A DNA stretch of 64,000 bases from Salinibacter ruber DSM 13855 (GTDB taxonomy: Bacteria; Bacteroidota; Rhodothermia; Rhodothermales; Salinibacteraceae): NCBI RefSeq assembly GCF_000013045.1, contig NC_007677.1:186001-250000 (forward strand), given 5' to 3'. The translations under genes were made by a program, and so were the position numbers. The notes under the pieces were generated by a model, which saw nothing but the letters and a program-made list of their open reading frames with translations, did not search any database and was not told the DNA's origin. How positions within the stretch are numbered: the first letter of the stretch is position 1; every line of letters begins with the position of its first letter. Below are positions 9,674-27,278 of this stretch, piece by piece.

Positions 9674-12600
9674 ATGTTTATGTGGCCACCGCCTCTTGGT
9701 AAACCCGTCTATTTAATATACATCTCGGTGTTCGGGGGGGCGGCCCTGTCCTGCCTGCTCGGGGCGTGGCGGGCCCAGCGGATTGCGGGTTCGGACGTAC
9801 GCCGCGGGTTGGTTGCCCTGCTGTCCACGAGCGGCCTCTGGGCCGTTGCGCACGTCGGAATGCTTCTCGCCCCGGGCCTGCAGTGGAAAACCGTCTTTTA
9901 CGAGGCCGGGCTCGTCGTCGGGTTCGGCACGGTCTGGGCCTGGGGCTGGCTCTGCTCCGCCTACAGCGGGCGCAGGCTGCACCGGCGCCGAATGGTTCAA
10001 GGAATTGCTCTCGTCGTGTTTGTGGTGGTGACGCTCACAAAGTTGACCAACGCCTGGCACGGGCTGTACTTCGCGGCCGGGTGGCACACCACCCCGTTTG
10101 CTCATCTCCAGATCGACCACCGAACGCTTTACTGGATCACCGCCGCTCTGTCTTACACCTTGGCGGCAGTCGGCTTCTTCATGGTCGCCGAGCCGTTGCG
10201 GCGCGTTCAGGTCGGGGCCGGGCGGCTGGCGGGCCTGTTCGGGCTGACGGCCCTTCCGCTCATCGCGAACGGGCTGGGGTACCTTAGCCCCGCACTGCTG
10301 GACGTGAGTCACGAGCCGGTCGGCGTGGCGGCGTTTGCGATCGGCGTGCTGTTTGTTTACCAGGATCGGTTTGAAGAGACGGGCCGGACGGGCACTCAGG
10401 CAAATCCGGCCTTAGTGCTCTCCAAGGGGGGACGGCTGCGAAACTACAACGAGGCGGCCGCCACGCTCTTTCCGGCCTTGGCGGCAAAGAGCGCCGCCGG
10501 CCGACGCCTTTCGGATCTCCTTCCGGAGGTGGCGGAGGCAATTGCGGAGGGGGCGGAGCCCCTCCAGGTCGACGAGAACGGGACCGCCCGATACTTCCGC
10601 CTGTCCCAAAGCAGGTACGGACGAGGCACGGGGCGGCAGGTGGTCCTGAAAGACGTGACCGAGCGTGTGCTGCGGCGCCGGGTCCGGGAGCAGGAGCACC
10701 GCTTTCTGGCCGAGGCGGTGGGGCAGGCCCGGGAGGCCGTACTGGTCACGGAGGCCGGGCCGCTCGACGAGCCCGGGCCCCGGATTGTCTACGCCAACGA
10801 GGCGTTCGAGGCGATGACCGGCTACCGGGAGGGAGAGGTGCTCGGCCGAACGCCCCGCGTCTTGCAGGGCCCAGAGACCGACGAGGCAGTGCTCGGCTCG
10901 CTCCGCGCAGCCCTGGAGGCGGGGGAGCGCTGGCAGGGGGAGACGGTCAACTACCGGAAGGACGGAACGCCGTACGTGGTGCAGTGGAACGTGGCCCCAG
11001 TGACAGGGGAAGGGGGAGAGATTCAGCACTGGGTCTCCGTCCAGCGGGACGTGACCGAGGAGCGAGAGCGAGAGGAACAGCTCCGCAGGCAGAAGGGCCT
11101 CCTGGAGCAGACCCAGCGGCTGGCGGGGGCGTGGGAGGTTGATGTGGAGACCGGAGAAGGGACCGGGTCGGAGGCGTTCTACCAAATCTTGGAGATGGAG
11201 GGCGAACCGGCACTCACCGCGGAGAAGGGATTCCAGTTTTTTGCTCCCGAGGCGCGCCCGCAGGTCAGGGAGGCGTTTGAGCGCTGTGTGGAGACGGGAA
11301 CGCCCTATGACCTGGAGCTCCCGGTCGTCACCGCGGAGGGACACCGCCGGTGGGTCCGCACCGTGGGGGGCCCGTCCGAGACGTCCGAGGGGGAGGTGAC
11401 AAAAGTAGCCGGGGCCCTCCAGGACATTACCCCGCGGAAGGAAACCGAGGAGAAGCTTCGGCGCAGCCGCGAGCAGCTGTCGATGGCCGTGGAGGGGGGC
11501 AACGTGGGCACTTGGAACTGGGACCTGGAGACCGACGAGGTGATTTTTAACCGGCGGTGGGCCGAAATGCTGGGCTACTCCCGTGAGGAGTTGGACTTCG
11601 ATTTCAGCACCTGGGAGGCGCTAGTGCATCCGGAGGACCTGCCCCGTGCCCTCCAGATGCTGGAGACCTACATCGAGGGAGATGCCGGCACCTACGACCC
11701 GGAAATCCGAATGCGAACGAAGTCCGGCGGCTGGAAGTGGATCCAGACGATCGGCAGGGTGGTCGAGCGGGATGGGGAGGGCGCCGTCACCCGCGCCGCG
11801 GGCATCCACCTCGACATCGACGAGCGCAAGCGGGCCGAGGCCGAGCTCCAGCGCAGCCGCGAGCGCTACCGGTCGCTGTTCGAAGACTCCTCCAGCGCCA
11901 TCCTGGTCCACGACCTGGAGGGCCGGATCCAGGAGGCCAACCCGCAGGCCGAGTCGCTCTTCGGTCGCAGTACAGGCGCGCTTGAGGGCCTGTCGGTACG
12001 CGACCTCCACCCGTCAGGAGAAAGCGAGGTCGCCACGGAAAAACGGGCTGCCCTCCGGGACGGAGCGGCGTACCAGGCCGTTGCCCGGTACGAACGGGCC
12101 GACGGATCGGCGTTTTGGGGCGAGGTCTCCGCCAGCGTAACCGAAATTGGGGGCCGGGCCGTGGCGCGCACCCTGATCCAAGACGTGACCGAGCGGGTAC
12201 GGAGCCGCAAAAAGCTTGAGCACTACCGGGAGTACACCGATCGCCTGCTCGACGCGATCGACGATCTGTTCCTCGTGTTCGACGAGGAGGCCAAGCTTAC
12301 GCGCTGGAACGACCGCGTTGTGGAGGTCACCGGCTACGCCGATGAAGCCCTTGGGGGCATGGAGGCCCTCGGCTTCGTCCCCGAAGAGGAGCGGGAGCGG
12401 GTCGCATCCCAGATTGCCGACGGGTTCATGACCGGCCATGCAAAGATGGACATCCCGCTCCGCCGCGCGGACGGGACCACGGTGCCCTACGAGATTGCGG
12501 GAAACCTGGTCGACCGCCCCGGGGAGGGGTTCCGGGTGGTGTGTATCGGCCGGGACATCACTGCGCGAAGGCGACGAAAGCAGCGCCTGGAGCGGCAAAA

Positions 12601-14680
12601 CGACCTCTTTGAGCGGGCGCAGGAGATTGCCAATGTGGGCGCCTGGGAGTACGACGTGCGGAAGGAGAGAAGCGTGCTGACGGACCAGGCATGCCGCATC
12701 CACGGGATTTCGCCGGACCGCGACCTGACCCCGGAGCAAAGTCTGGCGTTTTACCACCCGGACGACCGGGATGCGGTCGCAGCGGCGTTCCGGAGGGCCG
12801 TCGAGGAGGGCGTGCCCTACGACATGGAGGTTCGCCTGATGACCCAGGAAGGGGAGGAGCGGTGGGTCCGCACCCGCGGGGAGCCGCAACTCGACACCAG
12901 TGCGGCCGAGGCCGCGAATGGAGATGCCTCGAAGGGGCAGGACAGCTCGCAGGGCGAGATCGTCCGGGTGCGGGGGACGGTCCAGGACATCACCGAGCGC
13001 AGGGAGCGCCGCCGGGAGCTGGAGCAGGCCGACACGATGTTTCGGGGCGCCCAGGATGCTCTGTTCCTGATCGACGTCGACCACGCCGGCGGCGAGCCGT
13101 CGTTTGCGATTGAGAAGCTCAATCCCGCCTACGAGGAGGCCACCGGGATGTCCGCAGCGTCCGTTCGGGGGAAAACGCCAGTGGAAGCCATTGGAGACGA
13201 GGCCGGCCGGTTTCGGGAGGCACGGTACCAGAAGTGCCTCGACCAGGAGAAGCCCCTCGAATACGAAGAAGAGATTCCCCTGGAGGGGGAAATGACCTAC
13301 TGGGAGACCCGAATCACGCCGGTCTTGGTGGGGGGAACGGCCGAGAAAATCGTCGGCTCTACCCGCGAGGTGACCGGCCGCAAGCAGCGGGAGCAGTTTC
13401 GCCGCCAGCGGCGCCAGAAGGTCGAGGCCCTCTACGAGGCCACCAACCAGTTGCTTCGGGCCGAGGGCAAGGAGGCCGTGGGGGCGCTGCTCGTGGACCT
13501 CGTCGACGAAACGTTCGACTTCGCGGGCACGGCCGTCCGCTTCGCGAAAGACGGCCGGCTGGTCCCCACCAGCGTCTCCCCTGCGCTCCAGGCGCACATG
13601 CCGGAGCGCCAGTCCTATAATTTTGACGAAGAGACGCCCGTGGCCGAATCGTACCGGACGGGTCAGACCCAGGTCTACCACAACCTCCGAGAGGGAGACA
13701 GCGCAGTGAACCGGGGGGATATTCGGGCGGCGGCCTACGTGCCGATGGGCCGCCACGGCACCCTCTCGGTGGGCAGTCGCCGGGTTGGAGGAATTGACTC
13801 TTTTGACCGCCGCCTCGTCGAAGTGATAGCCGACTACGCCACCCTGGTGCTCGGTCGCGTGGATCGGGAAGCGGTTCTCCGCGGGGCGAAAGAGGAGGCC
13901 GAACGGGCCCGCCAAGAGGCGGAGGCGGCAAGCCAGGCGAAGTCCGTCTTCCTGGCGAACATGAGCCACGAGATCCGCACGCCGCTGACCTCCATCCTCG
14001 GCTTTGCGGAGGCCATCGGGGAGGAGGTCGGCGGGGACGACCAGACCGAGAAGACCGACCGGTCGGACGTGGACCTGCCGGCGCTCCGTCAGTTTGCCGC
14101 CCTGATCGAAAGCAGCGGAGAGCGCCTCATGAACACGCTCACCGGTGTGCTCAACCTTTCGAAGCTGGAGGCCGGTGAGATGAACCTTGCCCCCGAGCCG
14201 GTTGACCTGGCCGCGGAGGCCGAGAAGGCCGTTCAGGAGTTCGACCCGCAGGCGCGAGACGCCGGGGTTGACCTGGCGGCGGAGGGAGGCCAAGACGCAG
14301 TCTGGGCCCGGGCCGACGAGGGCGGCGTGCAGATCGTGCTCCGCAATCTCTTGAGCAACGCCGTTAAGTACACGGGAGAGGGCGGTGCGGTGCGAGTTTC
14401 TGCCCGGACGGACGGGAAACAGGACGCCGTGCTGGAGGTGGTGGACACCGGCATTGGGATGGACCCGGCCCAGGTGGAGGATCTGTTCGAGCCGTTCCGT
14501 CAGGAGTCCGAGGGCCTGGCCCGGGAGTACGAGGGCACTGGGCTGGGCCTGGCGGTGACCTGGAAGGCCCTCCAGCAGATGGAGGGGGGCGTCGAGGTGG
14601 AGACCGAAAAGGGCGAGGGCACCTGCTTCACGGTCCGGCTTCCGGCGGCACGTGTGGAGAACGGCCTAGACGAGCCCTGA
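9674..14680 (+). CDS. Giant 7TM multi-PAS histidine kinase
   Basis: Protein of 1668 residues. A seven-helix membrane sensor of the HisKA_7TM type (about 1-235), common in haloarchaea, is followed by roughly eight PAS domains (starting near 245, 341, 473, 599, 729, 855, 975 and 1119; most end in a D-[IV]-T-x-R motif), a GAF domain (about 1250-1400), a HisKA domain with MSHEIRTPL (phosphorylated His near 1432) and an HATPase domain (about 1545-1660; NLLSNAVKYTG, DTGIGM, GTGLGL). There is no receiver domain, so it is not a hybrid kinase. The start is supported by a GGAGGA ribosome-binding sequence about 10 bases before the ATG. No regulator gene is adjacent. The PAS array could integrate several redox, light or ligand inputs; none can be assigned. 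Confidence 0.93.
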   Translation: MFMWPPPLGKPVYLIYISVFGGAALSCLLGAWRAQRIAGSDVRRGLVALLSTSGLWAVAHVGMLLAPGLQWKTVFYEAGLVVGFGTVWAWGWLCSAYSGRRLHRRRMVQGIALVVFVVVTLTKLTNAWHGLYFAAGWHTTPFAHLQIDHRTLYWITAALSYTLAAVGFFMVAEPLRRVQVGAGRLAGLFGLTALPLIANGLGYLSPALLDVSHEPVGVAAFAIGVLFVYQDRFEETGRTGTQANPALVLSKGGRLRNYNEAAATLFPALAAKSAAGRRLSDLLPEVAEAIAEGAEPLQVDENGTARYFRLSQSRYGRGTGRQVVLKDVTERVLRRRVREQEHRFLAEAVGQAREAVLVTEAGPLDEPGPRIVYANEAFEAMTGYREGEVLGRTPRVLQGPETDEAVLGSLRAALEAGERWQGETVNYRKDGTPYVVQWNVAPVTGEGGEIQHWVSVQRDVTEEREREEQLRRQKGLLEQTQRLAGAWEVDVETGEGTGSEAFYQILEMEGEPALTAEKGFQFFAPEARPQVREAFERCVETGTPYDLELPVVTAEGHRRWVRTVGGPSETSEGEVTKVAGALQDITPRKETEEKLRRSREQLSMAVEGGNVGTWNWDLETDEVIFNRRWAEMLGYSREELDFDFSTWEALVHPEDLPRALQMLETYIEGDAGTYDPEIRMRTKSGGWKWIQTIGRVVERDGEGAVTRAAGIHLDIDERKRAEAELQRSRERYRSLFEDSSSAILVHDLEGRIQEANPQAESLFGRSTGALEGLSVRDLHPSGESEVATEKRAALRDGAAYQAVARYERADGSAFWGEVSASVTEIGGRAVARTLIQDVTERVRSRKKLEHYREYTDRLLDAIDDLFLVFDEEAKLTRWNDRVVEVTGYADEALGGMEALGFVPEEERERVASQIADGFMTGHAKMDIPLRRADGTTVPYEIAGNLVDRPGEGFRVVCIGRDITARRRRKQRLERQNDLFERAQEIANVGAWEYDVRKERSVLTDQACRIHGISPDRDLTPEQSLAFYHPDDRDAVAAAFRRAVEEGVPYDMEVRLMTQEGEERWVRTRGEPQLDTSAAEAANGDASKGQDSSQGEIVRVRGTVQDITERRERRRELEQADTMFRGAQDALFLIDVDHAGGEPSFAIEKLNPAYEEATGMSAASVRGKTPVEAIGDEAGRFREARYQKCLDQEKPLEYEEEIPLEGEMTYWETRITPVLVGGTAEKIVGSTREVTGRKQREQFRRQRRQKVEALYEATNQLLRAEGKEAVGALLVDLVDETFDFAGTAVRFAKDGRLVPTSVSPALQAHMPERQSYNFDEETPVAESYRTGQTQVYHNLREGDSAVNRGDIRAAAYVPMGRHGTLSVGSRRVGGIDSFDRRLVEVIADYATLVLGRVDREAVLRGAKEEAERARQEAEAASQAKSVFLANMSHEIRTPLTSILGFAEAIGEEVGGDDQTEKTDRSDVDLPALRQFAALIESSGERLMNTLTGVLNLSKLEAGEMNLAPEPVDLAAEAEKAVQEFDPQARDAGVDLAAEGGQDAVWARADEGGVQIVLRNLLSNAVKYTGEGGAVRVSARTDGKQDAVLEVVDTGIGMDPAQVEDLFEPFRQESEGLAREYEGTGLGLAVTWKALQQMEGGVEVETEKGEGTCFTVRLPAARVENGLDEP

Positions 14681-21394: not shown

Positions 21395-21805
21395 GACGAG
21401 AGACGGTCCGTATCGAAAGATTGGTCACCCGGTGGGGAAAAGGCCGTCCGGGCAGGCGCGTTCGGAGGGGCCGCGGTCCCTGAGGCCACCGCATCGTTCG
21501 GTTGATCGAACCTCGGGCGGCCCCACGAAGGGCGGTCGCTCCGGCGTGATTTCCACCGCGGAGCCTATCTGCGTCTTGCCCTCAGGGCGCTTGTTGCGAT
21601 TTGCCTTGGAGCAGGCGAAGGTTGGCCTGCAGGTCCAATGTCGTTTATCCCCGTTGTAGCGCAGGGCGTGGAATTACGCTTCAGAAGTCCGGAGATGGAT
21701 TCCTGAATTCCCGAGCACTGGTGTTTTTCAAGGAAAGGCACTTGCAGTGGATGCGGAAAGACAGGCGCTCCTTCAGAGGACCGGCTTCTTCGCAATCCCT
21801 GTCTT
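21395..21805 (+). other. 411-bp gap without a gene
   Basis: Lies between the methyltransferase start and the end of the small repeat-bearing protein gene. The part near 21700-21800 is AT-richer, but no hairpin with a T-run or recognisable coding frame was found. Confidence 0.45.
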
Positions 21806-22195
21806 TTAGTTTCCGTATTTCTCGTCCGCGTATTCTCCGTCTACGTACTGATCATCCGTGTACTGATTGTCCGTGTGTTGACCGCTTGCGTGTCTCTTGA
21901 CTTGTCCTGGGTTCTCTGGGGGGCCTCCTCCTGGTGTGCTATTTGAAGGTCCACCACAACCCTTTCCTACACCCTCTCCATTTTCGGAAGCGTCCGGGCA
22001 GGAAGGGGCGCCCTCGGCAAATGCCGGCACGCTGCCGACGGTCATGATTGCCGGCGCGGCGTAGGCGCTCTTCTTGAGCATGTCCCGCCTCGACATTGAC
22101 GGCCCTTCGCTCTCGTTCTCGTGGGCGGGAGGGGATTGGTCGGGCTTCTCGTTCGTGTTTTCAGGGCGTTCGGGGGCGTCGTGTCCGCGGGGCAT
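21806..22195 (-). CDS. Small twin-arginine-like protein with xDxxY repeats (candidate peptide substrate)
   Basis: Protein of 129 residues. An acidic leader (1-33) is followed by MSRRDMLKKSAYAAPAI (34-50), a hydrophobic stretch and PAFAEG, which look like a twin-arginine-type export signal with an AFA cleavage site; the pattern KKS-x-Y-x-AP is common in small proteins of this type. After a cysteine-bearing segment (SCPD...GKGCGG) the C-terminus carries four five-residue repeats, TDNQY, TDDQY, VDGEY and ADEKY, then GN. It lies about 130 bp downstream of, and on the same strand as, the PqqD/HprK-like fusion gene. I infer that it is a substrate or precursor for that enzyme. A start at residue 34 is also possible. 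Confidence 0.6.
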   Translation of the reverse strand: MPRGHDAPERPENTNEKPDQSPPAHENESEGPSMSRRDMLKKSAYAAPAIMTVGSVPAFAEGAPSCPDASENGEGVGKGCGGPSNSTPGGGPPENPGQVKRHASGQHTDNQYTDDQYVDGEYADEKYGN

Positions 22196-22325: not shown

Positions 22326-23462
22326 TCACCCCAGCACGGGCGCCAACAGCTCCCCAATGTCGGTCTGCCCGTCGTGGCGCAGCCGAAAGGAGGAGACTCG
22401 GCCGGCCAGCCGGGACAGCTCCCGCACCGCCTCTCCCCGGTGGCGGCTTGCGTTTTGGCAGCTTTCTACGAGTGATACCGCGGCTTCGGGGGCGGCCTGC
22501 TCTTCGACCCCCGCTGGGCGGTCCGCCTCGAAAGCCGGAAAGAAAACGGCCTCCGGCCGGACGGGCGCGTCTTGAAGACGGCCGGCCTCCAGGTCCACGT
22601 GCGTCTTTGGAAGCCCGGACGGCCCTTCCTCCAGGGACTGGTTCTCGCCGGGCTGGCGGTACGCGATCGTCACTGGAAGGGGGACGACCCGGCCCGTGTC
22701 GGGGTCGTACGGCGTGAGGTCGTCGGACACGTGCGTCCATCCGGAGCGACAGAGGTCCGCAATCGTCGTGCTTTTTCCACCGCCGGATGGCCCGGCCACC
22801 AGTACGGCGGTTCCGTTTCGGGCTGCCGCCCCGGCGTGAAGCCAGATCAGGTCCCGGCGCGCTTCCATGAACCGCAGCAGAACCGTGCGCTTCAGGCGCT
22901 GCACTGCGGCTGTGAGCGGGCGTGCCTCGCCGCCCCGCGCCTGCGGGGACCGGACGGAGACCCCGTCGCCCGCCTCCTCCGCGGTAAGCACGTCGACAGT
23001 CTCGGCGCCCGTCTCCCTGCCGATCAGGCCGTGGAACAGGCGGCGCACGGCTCGCTCCAACCTCGGCGCGGTGGTCTTCACTATCACCTGGTGGTTCCCA
23101 AACACAACGTTCAGCGTCGTTGCCCCCGGTCCATCGGCCTGGTCGCCGCGGCCCGCCGCCGCGCCGCCGTCGGCGGTCGGATCAGGGCGATGGACGAACA
23201 GGAGGTCCTGGTCACTCAAATGAGAAACGACTTGTCGTAGACCGTCGGGGGACGTGGGCGAGGGGATGTCGGCACGATCACTGACCCTCCGGTCGATCTT
23301 TTGGAGGGGCGTGTTGCCGTCACAGTGCTCCCAGACCTCTCGTGCGAGGGCGGTTACCGCAAAGACCTGGTCCCGCCCCAAGTCGTGCAGGACGGCACCG
23401 CCTGTGACGCGGTGGGCCTCCACCGATGGATTGCGGAGGGGAATGTCTTCGTCTCGTATCAT
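22326..23462 (-). CDS. PqqD-like domain fused to an HprK-like kinase
   Basis: About 378 residues from the ATG at 23462 (MIRDEDIPLRNPSVEAHRV). Residues 1-85 look like a PqqD/RiPP-recognition domain: a strand pair, then VFAVTALAREVWEHCDGNTP and a helix with LRQVVSHLSDQDLL. Residues 95-378 resemble the HPr kinase/phosphorylase catalytic core, with P-loop AGPSGGGKSTT near 222-232 and acidic SDDLTPYD just after. HprK homologues phosphorylate Ser in HPr and, in some lasso-peptide clusters, the peptide itself; PqqD-type domains bind leader peptides. The fusion next to a small exported protein suggests peptide recognition and phosphorylation. The substrate is unknown. Sequence upstream of 23462 in the same frame looks non-coding. 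Confidence 0.75.
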   Translation of the reverse strand: MIRDEDIPLRNPSVEAHRVTGGAVLHDLGRDQVFAVTALAREVWEHCDGNTPLQKIDRRVSDRADIPSPTSPDGLRQVVSHLSDQDLLFVHRPDPTADGGAAAGRGDQADGPGATTLNVVFGNHQVIVKTTAPRLERAVRRLFHGLIGRETGAETVDVLTAEEAGDGVSVRSPQARGGEARPLTAAVQRLKRTVLLRFMEARRDLIWLHAGAAARNGTAVLVAGPSGGGKSTTIADLCRSGWTHVSDDLTPYDPDTGRVVPLPVTIAYRQPGENQSLEEGPSGLPKTHVDLEAGRLQDAPVRPEAVFFPAFEADRPAGVEEQAAPEAAVSLVESCQNASRHRGEAVRELSRLAGRVSSFRLRHDGQTDIGELLAPVLG

Positions 23463-26286: not shown

Positions 26287-27021
26287 TCAGGGAAGCAAGC
26301 CCGTGTCCCGGAAGAAGAACGACGCGAGCCACCCGAGAGACGACGCCAGAAGAAACAGGGCGGCCAATCCGACCCAGTGAACGGCCACCGGGACCCCAAA
26401 CGAATCGCGGGTCCTCTCCGCCGCCATCGGTTCTGTCGTCGAGGCCTCGTTCCCCAAAGACACCTGTGCTGCCAGCGTCAACATCGAGGAGACAACCGGC
26501 AGTACCAGGGCAATCAGGGCTAAGGGGGAGGGCTCCATCATCTCTGACTGAAAAAGCGTGATGATCCCCCCGGAGAGAACGAGCCCAACGGTCGTCAGGT
26601 GCTTTAACTTCTCGTGCTGGAAGGCAAAGGCGTCCCAGTCTCGCTGCCTACGGGCGGGCTGCGTGCCGGTGGGACGGGCGCGAGCAGAACTGCCGCTTTC
26701 CTCTTTGTCACCTGCTCGGCCGGTCCCGGGGGGACTGGTCTCCGTTTGGCGTCCCGCCCCGCCGTGGCTGGATCCAGGCCCAGAATTGGGGTCAGGCCCA
26801 GAATTGGGGTCAGGCCCGGAATTGGGGGCAGGCCCGGAATTGGGGGCAGGCCCGGAATTGGAGTCAGGCCCAGGGGGGGACCCAGGCCGCGGTCCCGTGC
26901 CGCCCTGAGTCTCCTCTTCTCCTGCAGCGCGTGCCTTTCGGTCGGCATCTGCCTCCCGGTTGGCACCTGCCTCTTTTCCGGCGTCCGTCTCCGGGCTTTG
27001 GGATGCGTTGGCGTTGCCCAT
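26287..27021 (-). CDS. Membrane protein with a long disordered repeat-rich N-terminus
   Basis: About 244 residues from the ATG at 27021 (MGNANASQSPET). The first 120 or so residues are charged and disordered, containing a Gly-Pro-x-Pro-Asn-Ser six-residue repeat run. The C-terminal half has an amphipathic segment (RDWDAFAFQHEKLKHL) and three to four helices (about 145-165, 170-192, 215-240). This layout resembles small bacterial membrane proteins with a cytoplasmic tail; no family recognised. An ATG at 27117 would add 32 residues without protein character. Convergent with paralogue copy 1. Confidence 0.65.
   Translation of the reverse strand: MGNANASQSPETDAGKEAGANREADADRKARAAGEEETQGGTGPRPGSPPGPDSNSGPAPNSGPAPNSGPDPNSGPDPNSGPGSSHGGAGRQTETSPPGTGRAGDKEESGSSARARPTGTQPARRQRDWDAFAFQHEKLKHLTTVGLVLSGGIITLFQSEMMEPSPLALIALVLPVVSSMLTLAAQVSLGNEASTTEPMAAERTRDSFGVPVAVHWVGLAALFLLASSLGWLASFFFRDTGLLP
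26777..26875 (-). repeat. 18-bp tandem repeat encoding GPAPNS/GPDPNS
   Basis: About five to six copies of an 18-bp unit (GGCCCRGAATTGGGGKCA on the plus strand) inside the membrane-protein gene at 26287. Each codes for six residues, so copy changes stay in frame. Confidence 0.85.
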
Positions 27022-27278
27022 GGCGGGGAGGTGTGTAAGCTGTGCGCGGCAAAACCTGCGTCCGGACGGACAGGGAGCGGGGGCAGGCGATAGCATGAAG
27101 GAACCGGACGACGGCACCAGCCCCCACCGGCCCGGCTGCAGAACAGATGCGCCGTGCCTCTGCGCCCAGTATCTTAGACTGTCTCGACCCGTTGTGGTTC
27201 GTCTACGGCGGGCTCGGGGACACGAGAGACGGAGAACGCCACGGTCGGGGCTCAGGCGGGCCGGTTCCGATCCCTGTC

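What the first reader, a model, noticed from the sequence alone, without database searches (positions are those of the whole stretch)
21806..21890. Four xDxxY pentapeptide repeats at the end of the small protein
The C-terminus reads TDNQY, TDDQY, VDGEY and ADEKY, then GN: a strict five-residue spacing of Asp and Tyr. The DNA repeats every 15 bp but is diverged, so the protein pattern may be under selection. Regular Tyr/Asp in the last residues of a putative modification substrate is what a repeated modification site would look like.
Basis: seen in the sequence. Interest (0 to 1): 0.55.

Follow-up and report, generated by a model that had tools for sequence, protein, structure and literature searches.

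The report
Signal-led kinase substrate with Tyr/His pentads
A small bacterial protein that looks made to be modified by the kinase encoded next to it, and then exported, ends in five-residue repeats each closing with tyrosine or histidine; the spacing survives in one diverged relative, but the tyrosines are probably not what the kinase modifies.

Summary
The four xDxxY units are real, and the array is longer than reported. Counting His with Tyr, all six such residues of the tail lie exactly five apart (QVKRH ASGQH TDNQY TDDQY VDGEY ADEKY GN). One relative (G002; partner kinase 55% identical) keeps the spacing: seven units, Tyr/His in six, though the rest of its units no longer repeat. The Asp is not kept. 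The other 10 of 13 peptides found class-wide have different tails; the conserved part is the leader. All 13 leaders combine a twin-arginine-like signal with [Y/W]xxPx[I/L/V], the motif bound by RiPP recognition elements (RREs) in lasso and linear polyphosphorylated peptides (LPPs). The gene upstream encodes an RRE-like domain fused to an HprK-like kinase with published catalytic residues at identical spacing. All 7 genomes of 244 with the close kinase have such peptides (8 genomes do). Likely mechanism: the kinase binds the leader, phosphorylates a Ser/Thr near the start of the mature peptide, and the product is exported. Two characterised kinases of this type did not phosphorylate Tyr, so the 'repeated Tyr modification site' reading is weakened, not excluded. 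A new variant of a known kind; binding, phosphorylation and export are inferred.

The parts
21806..22195 (-). 129-aa putative precursor/substrate peptide (ATG 22195; stop 21806-21808)
   Evidence: Open frame; relatives G005 (87% identical) and G002 (45%) in A1 keep the order leader-linker-tail. Start codon not tested; Met34 is an alternative.
22010..22093 (-). Leader core S35-G62: SRRDMLK twin-arginine-like motif, Y45-AAP-A-I50 ([Y/W]xxPx[ILV], RRE-binding type), AFA (58-60) cleavage-like motif
   Evidence: RR and Pro invariant in 13 leaders; RRxx[LIM][KR] in 13 of 13, AxA in 11 of 13 (not G005, not one G186 peptide); [YW]xxPx[ILV] in 13 of 13 v 2 of 36 Tat-like control segments. Seven of the 13 were collected with a leader profile containing the motif.
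21905..22009 (-). Fast-changing Gly/Pro-rich linker with two Cys (C66, C80)
   Evidence: 58 of 96 aligned bases identical to G005 plus 27 gapped columns, against 176/186 in N-terminus plus leader and 90/90 in the tail units; two Cys in the mature part of each of G000, G005, G002, at different spacing.
21815..21904 (-). Pentad array, six units: QVKRH ASGQH TDNQY TDDQY VDGEY ADEKY
22326..23462 (-). 378-aa PqqD-type (RRE-like) domain fused to HprK-like kinase; catalytic set H209 G224 G227 G229 K230 S231 D247 D248. The frame is open upstream to 23954; start at 23462 chosen by homology
   Evidence: NCBIfam HprK_rel_A E 5e-19 (68.4 bits, below the 200-bit cut-off). Pfam PqqD 18.6 bits for the window, below the 23.4 cut-off, but 26 in G002 and 57.9 in G227. 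AF2 model, pLDDT 80.3, matches PEPCK, HprK/P 1kkl and the TbiB1-leader complex 5v1v. Motif spacing.

Best explanation
The 129-aa protein is the substrate of a two-gene, RiPP-like phosphopeptide cassette. Its leader is at once a twin-arginine-type export signal and a [Y/W]xxPx[I/L/V] docking motif. The PqqD-type domain of the neighbouring fusion kinase binds that motif and presents the peptide to the HprK-like domain, which phosphorylates a Ser/Thr just after the leader (in the window most likely Ser65). Export and signal-peptidase cleavage at AFA then release a mature peptide: an N-terminal Cys region, a fast-changing Gly/Pro linker and a C-terminal array whose Tyr/His spacing of five is the selected feature (display or binding rather than phosphorylation). 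Shown: the gene pair, the motifs, co-occurrence, the spacing. Inferred: binding, phosphorylation and its site, export, cleavage, the role of the tail.
For: Two-gene unit in different surroundings: comparing window frames of 8-40 kb with the 16 kb fetched around the G002 copy, only the kinase and peptide frames (and frames overlapping them) match; kinase then peptide again in G227. Close kinase (E<1e-30; next best 1.2e-12) in 7 of 244 class genomes; short leader peptides in 8 of 244, including all 7. Leader motif 13 of 13, the published RRE-binding motif. TbiB1, a lasso RRE, is the best PDB sequence match of the kinase profile, E 8e-7, and the model matches its leader complex (TM 0.75 by target, rank 46, E 1.2e-3). 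Eight catalytic residues at BsfK's spacing. Ser/Thr at aromatic+18 in 9 of 13 peptides, the Y-16 to S3 distance of LppA. Tyr/His spacing kept in G002 without residual DNA repeat at positions 1-4.
Against: The window, G005, G002 and G191 lack Ser/Thr at aromatic+18 (Ala or Gly there; nearest +20, in G002 +17 and +19). The G002 kinase has Asn for the last catalytic Asp. In G185-G187 the kinase and peptides are on different contigs, so linkage is unknown there, and the PqqD part is a separate frame. G191 has a peptide without the close kinase. The co-occurring genomes come from three lineages (genus g1, family f8, genus g45); eight of the 13 peptides are f8 relatives; the G227 peptide was found through its kinase; the 13 peptides were rows of its profile, so their E-values there are by construction. 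Selection on the spacing rests on two lineages. Sequence support for the HprK part alone is modest (PDB HprK E 0.075; Foldseek's top rows are PEPCK). No expression, phosphorylation or export data.
Confidence: 0.55

Rival explanations
1. One reading: the tail is a multi-site acceptor, each Tyr (flanked by Asp/Glu) modified by the kinase or another enzyme.
For: Four Tyr, five apart, with acidic flanks; Tyr spacing kept with synonymous codons in G002; partner kinase has all eight catalytic residues.
Against: BsfK and LppK did not phosphorylate S3Y variants. Tails of G185a and G186c have no Ser/Thr/Tyr after +24 although those genomes have close kinases (G186c is cut by a contig end). His stands for Tyr in 3 of 13 units and is not the same kind of acceptor.
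Confidence: 0.12
2. The tail's Thr/Ser, not its Tyr, are repeated acceptors (S104, T108, T113 in the window; Ser-rich units in G002), with Asp at unit position 2 standing in for phosphoserine.
For: Unit position 2 is Ser/Asp/Glu in 11 of 13 units of the two species; BsfK uses Ser or Thr.
Confidence: 0.1
3. Neutral low-complexity tail: a decayed tandem duplication at the end of a disordered exported peptide, with no selected spacing.
For: In-register DNA similarity between the window's units (0.52 v 0.33); tails of relatives include other low-complexity repeats (KGKGG, GNGGGP, KKWKDDD); the identical G005 tail (90 of 90 bases) is not striking at about 97% local identity.
Against: In G002 the DNA repeat signal is gone from positions 1-4 (p 0.37) yet Tyr/His remains in 6 of 7 units; shared Tyr columns carry synonymous codons.
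Confidence: 0.25
4. A ligand-binding tail: periodic Tyr/His with Asp binds metal, heme or a surface polymer; the kinase is a maturation or control step.
For: His and Tyr share the same unit position in the window and G002; the G227 tail has His/Tyr every third residue, 8 of 9 in phase (p 0.001); the G191 tail repeats Trp with Lys/Asp.
Against: No such partner recognised among the 12 neighbouring window frames scanned, which is not every neighbour; several f8 tails lack the feature.
Confidence: 0.2
5. A lasso peptide precursor, cyclised after leader removal.
For: YxxPxI leader, RRE and HprK kinase as in phosphorylated lasso clusters; lasso-like precursors sit in another HprK locus of the family (L021); in G002 the pair lies about 14 kb from a PF13471 gene.
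Against: No lasso leader peptidase (PF13471) found in G000, 99.99% complete; in G005 the nearest is over 100 kb away.
Confidence: 0.03

Closest known systems
Linear polyphosphorylated peptides (LPP), Bacillota (PMC13381572, 2026; passages and sections 6 and 12 seen)
   Same: HprK-like kinase plus RRE; YxxP leader; conserved N-terminus with highly variable C-termini; no cyclase in the pair; leader removal by a signal peptidase (here only inferred).
   Different: RRE fused to the kinase rather than discrete (separate in G185-G187); twin-arginine-type signal; LPP consensus absent beyond YxxP; no PF14907 NTP transferase found in G000; the genome appears to be Salinibacter ruber (Rhodothermota), whereas the paper calls LPPs restricted to Bacillota; Tyr/His pentad tail.
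BsfA/BsfK/BsfB1 phosphorylated lasso system (PMC10368454; abstract start, passages and section 23 seen)
   Same: Leader YxxPx[L/I], RRE-assisted HprK-like kinase, identical spacing of eight catalytic residues.
   Different: Bsf has leader peptidase B2 and a cyclase; its RRE is separate; the core becomes a lasso.
HPr-rel-A systems of Proteobacteria (NCBIfam TIGR04352; Sphingomonas plasmid; similar Leisingera plasmid locus)
   Same: Short RR-signal peptide next to an HprK-like kinase (Sphingomonas: separate PqqD family gene); the Leisingera peptide has a Lys/Arg-rich tail.
   Different: Those loci also encode a nucleotidyltransferase; the window kinase scores 68 bits against a 200-bit cut-off. 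The 360-aa Leisingera kinase gave no Pfam PqqD match, so a fusion there is only my reading. No YxxP in either leader.
His-Xaa-Ser repeat proteins (HxsA4, NF038313)
   Same: The G227 tail of GSH/GSY repeats gives a sub-threshold hit (24.1 v 55 bits).
   Different: No radical SAM gene among the four G227 neighbour frames scanned; the window tail has no HxS repeat.

Membership tests
Linear polyphosphorylated peptides | HprK-like kinase with conserved catalytic residues | tested here: met
   H-G-G-G-K-S-D-D at BsfK spacing in 6 of 7 kinases, the window's included; last D is N in G002.
Linear polyphosphorylated peptides | Discrete RRE protein | tested here: not met
   RRE-like domain fused in the window, G005, G002, G227; a separate frame in G185, G186, G187.
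Linear polyphosphorylated peptides | YxxPxVLxHQxIxFETxxS leader consensus | tested here: not met
   Only [Y/W]xxPx[IVL] is shared.
Linear polyphosphorylated peptides | NTP transferase in the cluster | tested here: not met
   No PF14907 match in G000; 7 of the 8 genomes searched have one, not beside the pair where both are placed on one contig.
Linear polyphosphorylated peptides | Archaeal-type signal peptidase in the cluster | tested here: inconclusive
   None among the 12 neighbouring window frames scanned; other frames and the rest of the genome were not searched for it.
Linear polyphosphorylated peptides | Ser at core position 3 (aromatic+18), phosphorylated | tested here: inconclusive
   Ser/Thr there in 9 of 13 peptides (Thr in G227), not in the window; phosphorylation not testable here.
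Lasso peptides | Leader peptidase B2 (PF13471) | tested here: not met
   0 matches in G000; present in 6 of 8 genomes searched, about 14 kb from the pair in G002 and over 100 kb in G005.
Lasso peptides | Macrolactam cyclase | not tested
   Not searched genome-wide; none among the neighbouring frames scanned.
HPr-rel-A system (TIGR04352) | Kinase over the curated cut-off | tested here: not met
   68.4 bits v 200; 0 of 14 relatives over the cut-off.
Twin-arginine exported proteins | RRxx[LIM][KR] followed by an AxA-type site | tested here: met
   By sequence only: RRxx[LIM][KR] 13 of 13; AxA 11 of 13, the window included. Export and tatABC were not tested.

The most novel reading that the evidence does not exclude
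A phosphopeptide RiPP-like family outside Bacillota in which the export signal and the RRE docking motif are one and the same leader and the RRE is built into the kinase, so that modification and export compete for or gate each other; in this genus the exported peptide carries a selected Tyr/His pentad array that is itself a repeated site of a second modification or of ligand binding.
Probability: 0.2. Interest if true: 0.7.

Novelty: new variant of a known kind. Interest (0 to 1): 0.48.

Why it matters
Peptide kinases of the HprK type in RiPP pathways were described only recently and the roles of their products are unknown. A minimal two-gene version, with the recognition domain fused to the kinase and a leader that doubles as an export signal, would be the simplest test system for how such kinases choose their substrate, and would extend LPP-like chemistry beyond Bacillota. 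The Tyr/His array gives a concrete, varied C-terminus whose role can be probed.

Tried and rejected
Collection scans of genome contigs with the kinase and the peptide profile found no confirmed relative. A phylum draw with the kinase profile (5 of 394 genomes at E<=1e-8) added nothing outside the order. Peptide profile A1 at class level (21 of 244 at E<=0.01): besides the three genus members I kept only G185 and G191; the others I read were signal sequences of long proteins or chance frames, and not every row was read. The five weak same-genus matches (G003, G009-G012) read as unrelated frames and were dropped. A regex search for leaders near kinases was mostly noise; leader profiles worked. 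Of the places listed only those with E<=2.3e-5 (13) were taken as peptides; the rest were dropped. Plasmid tblastn with the leader gave only Rhizobium carbonic anhydrase at E 5-6. Lasso, HxS and HPr-rel-A membership were considered and not accepted (membership test). VIA-align ranked PEP carboxykinases first (Z 15.7, 4.2 A, 251 aligned); HprK and RRE rows are in Foldseek's list and not among the 50 rows that VIA-align showed. That PEPCK and HprK share a fold is recalled.

Organism: no call names G000. Its contigs (3,551,823 and, by subtraction, 35,505 bases) fit the 3.55-Mbp chromosome and 35.5-kbp plasmid of Salinibacter ruber M31 (PMC12613981, start of abstract in a search listing; lineage), so 'outside Bacillota' rests on that match.

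Papers: PMC10368454 start of abstract, passages, section 23; PMC13381572 start of abstract, passages, sections 6 and 12; PMC8498205, PMC12710340, PMC6784204 passages only; PMC12613981 listing only; PMC5067487 not seen. Searches returning no paper: RiPP + PqqD + kinase + twin-arginine; HprK-related kinase or HPr-rel-A.

Full report
Observation. The minus-strand frame 22195..21806 encodes 129 residues and ends TDNQY TDDQY VDGEY ADEKY GN. In the 30-residue tail 6 of 6 Tyr+His lie in one phase of five (0 of 20,000 shuffles), Tyr alone p 0.003, Asp alone (4 of 5) p 0.013 (tail chosen post hoc, 60 combinations tried). TRF sees only 2.1 copies. Unit DNA is still similar in register (0.52 v 0.33; positions 1-4 alone 0.45 v 0.33, p 0.0002), so the array looks like a decayed tandem duplication.

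Relatives within the genus. Of 13 genomes searched in the genus (the window's own included), 8 had a match at E<=0.1; besides G000 itself, G005 and G002 are true relatives (87% and 45% identical in A1), and the other five read as unrelated frames. G005 has an identical tail (90 of 90 bases) although the linker is strongly different (58 of 96 aligned bases, 27 gapped columns) and the N-terminus plus leader is 176 of 186; at about 97% local identity an unchanged 90-base tail is weak evidence by itself. G002 is the informative one: TSTDY VSERY GSDDY VDGNR SRSIH GEKDY SSSDY GVDD. All 5 Tyr are in one phase (p 0.00055), and 6 of 6 Tyr+His of the 42-residue tail (0 of 20,000). One further His of its mature part lies before the tail and out of phase, as does one in the G005 linker. 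Positions 1-4 of the seven units show no residual repeat (0.385 v 0.378, p 0.37; with position 5 included p 0.012), and the two Tyr columns shared with the window carry TAT for TAC. The Asp at position 2 is conserved at one of four aligned positions. This rests on two lineages.

The wider family. A six-row leader profile over 114 order genomes added seven short peptides at E 5.9e-8 to 2.3e-5. A 13-row profile over 244 class genomes found the same 13 peptides in 8 genomes and no further short one; those E-values are by construction, since all 13 are rows of the profile. Two more genomes have only signal-like starts of long proteins at about 3e-4. The tails differ: pentads (G000, G005, G002), GSH/GSY triplets (G227), KGKGG (G185), GNGGGP running off a contig end (G186), KKWKDDD (G191), and six short Cys-containing tails (G185, G186, G187). 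The pentad repeat is therefore one tail type of a family whose constant part is the leader.

The leader. RR and the Pro are invariant; RRxx[LIM][KR] in 13 of 13 and an AxA end in 11 of 13. All 13 carry [Y/W]xxPx[I/L/V] 7-8 residues after the second Arg, against 2 of 36 Tat-like segments of the control, which holds duplicate rows and a few spurious segments. Selection by profile makes the 13 of 13 partly circular, but the control segments came from the same kind of profile search. This is the motif recognised by RREs of lasso peptides and LPPs (PMC13381572 section 6; PMC6784204 and PMC12710340 passages). Export was not tested.

The partner. The gene immediately upstream on the same strand (22326-23462; 130 bases between it and the peptide start) has an N-terminal PqqD-type domain and an HprK-like domain. 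By family models the window copy is weak: PqqD 18.6 bits (cut-off 23.4), HprK_rel_A 68.4 bits (cut-off 200); PqqD passes in G002, G227 and the separate frames of G185-G187. A profile of ten sequences finds TbiB1, a lasso RRE, at 8e-7 and HprK only at 0.075. The AF2 model (pLDDT 80.3, pTM 0.77) matches PEP carboxykinases best, then HprK/P structures and the TbiB1-leader complex (ranks 37 and 46). The eight catalytic residues reported for BsfK (PMC10368454 section 23) are present at identical spacing in 6 of 7 kinases; G002 has Asn for the last Asp.

Linkage. Comparing window frames of 8-40 kb with the 16 kb around the G002 copy, only kinase and peptide frames (and frames overlapping them) match; the methyltransferase gene that flanks the pair in the window lies on another contig in G002. 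G227 repeats the order kinase-peptide. Close kinases (E<1e-30, next 1.2e-12) occur in 7 of 244 class genomes, all among the 8 with peptides. These are three lineages plus G191, not independent events. G227's peptide was found through its kinase; those of G185 and G191 first by a peptide profile, those of G186 and G187 by the leader profile. In G185-G187 kinase and peptides are on different contigs. G000 has no PF13471 leader peptidase and no PF14907 nucleotidyltransferase by these searches, so in this genome the pair seems to work without them.

Mechanism. By analogy with BsfK/BsfB1 and LppK/LppB, the RRE-like domain should bind the leader and the kinase should phosphorylate a residue shortly after it. 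In LppA, Y-16 to S3 is 18 residues; 9 of 13 peptides have Ser/Thr exactly at aromatic+18, eight of them related f8 peptides and one Thr (G227); the window has Ala there and Ser at +20 (Ser65). BsfK accepted Thr but not Tyr; LppK accepted neither. Two tails lack hydroxyl residues after +24. Tyr phosphorylation of the array is therefore the less likely reading. The tail is best seen as the exported, variable working end; in this genus a Tyr/His spacing of five appears selected. What it does is inferred, not shown.

Novelty. The parts are known; the combination (RRE fused to the kinase, export-type leader carrying the RRE motif, no NTP transferase, apparently Rhodothermota, pentad tail) was not met in what I saw of the papers returned (listings, and the passages and sections named above). 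LPP membership fails on several defining features, so it is described as working like an LPP.

Noticed in passing
window 26290-27117 (-): 276-aa frame with a run of six-residue PNSGPA/D repeats and no Pfam match; another short tandem-repeat frame near by.
   Followed up: no
window 21757-21806: Perfect 9-base inverted arms (AAAGACAGG 21757-21765, CCTGTCTTT 21798-21806) at and just after the peptide stop codon, terminator-like by eye; the stretch folds better than shuffles (z -2.4), but the predicted fold does not pair the whole arms.
   Followed up: partly
window 9674-14680 (+): 1668-aa frame that reads like a multi-PAS sensor histidine kinase (from the sequence only).
   Followed up: no
L011 (G002 kinase): Asn replaces the last catalytic Asp (SDN for SDD) in the copy paired with the diverged pentad tail.
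   Followed up: partly
L132-L137 (G185, G186, G187): Several leader peptides per genome; six have Cys at aromatic+22 and a second at +53. The kinase frames sit on other contigs beside a frame that reads like dihydrodipicolinate synthase (by eye).
   Followed up: partly
L143 4422-6813: Leisingera plasmid: RR-signal peptide with a Lys/Arg-rich tail, a 360-aa HprK-like kinase and a PF14907 nucleotidyltransferase in a row.
   Followed up: partly
L021 (G017): Two lasso-like precursors (TYTPPTLTTYGSV..., SYEAPTLTTFGSV...) in an HprK locus; after the RR part the window leader resembles them.
   Followed up: no
G002 contig C1, about 238-264 kb: Three further HprK-like frames, a PF14907 and a PF13471 gene lie within about 40 kb of the G002 pair at 278 kb: a lasso-type region near the cassette.
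   Followed up: no
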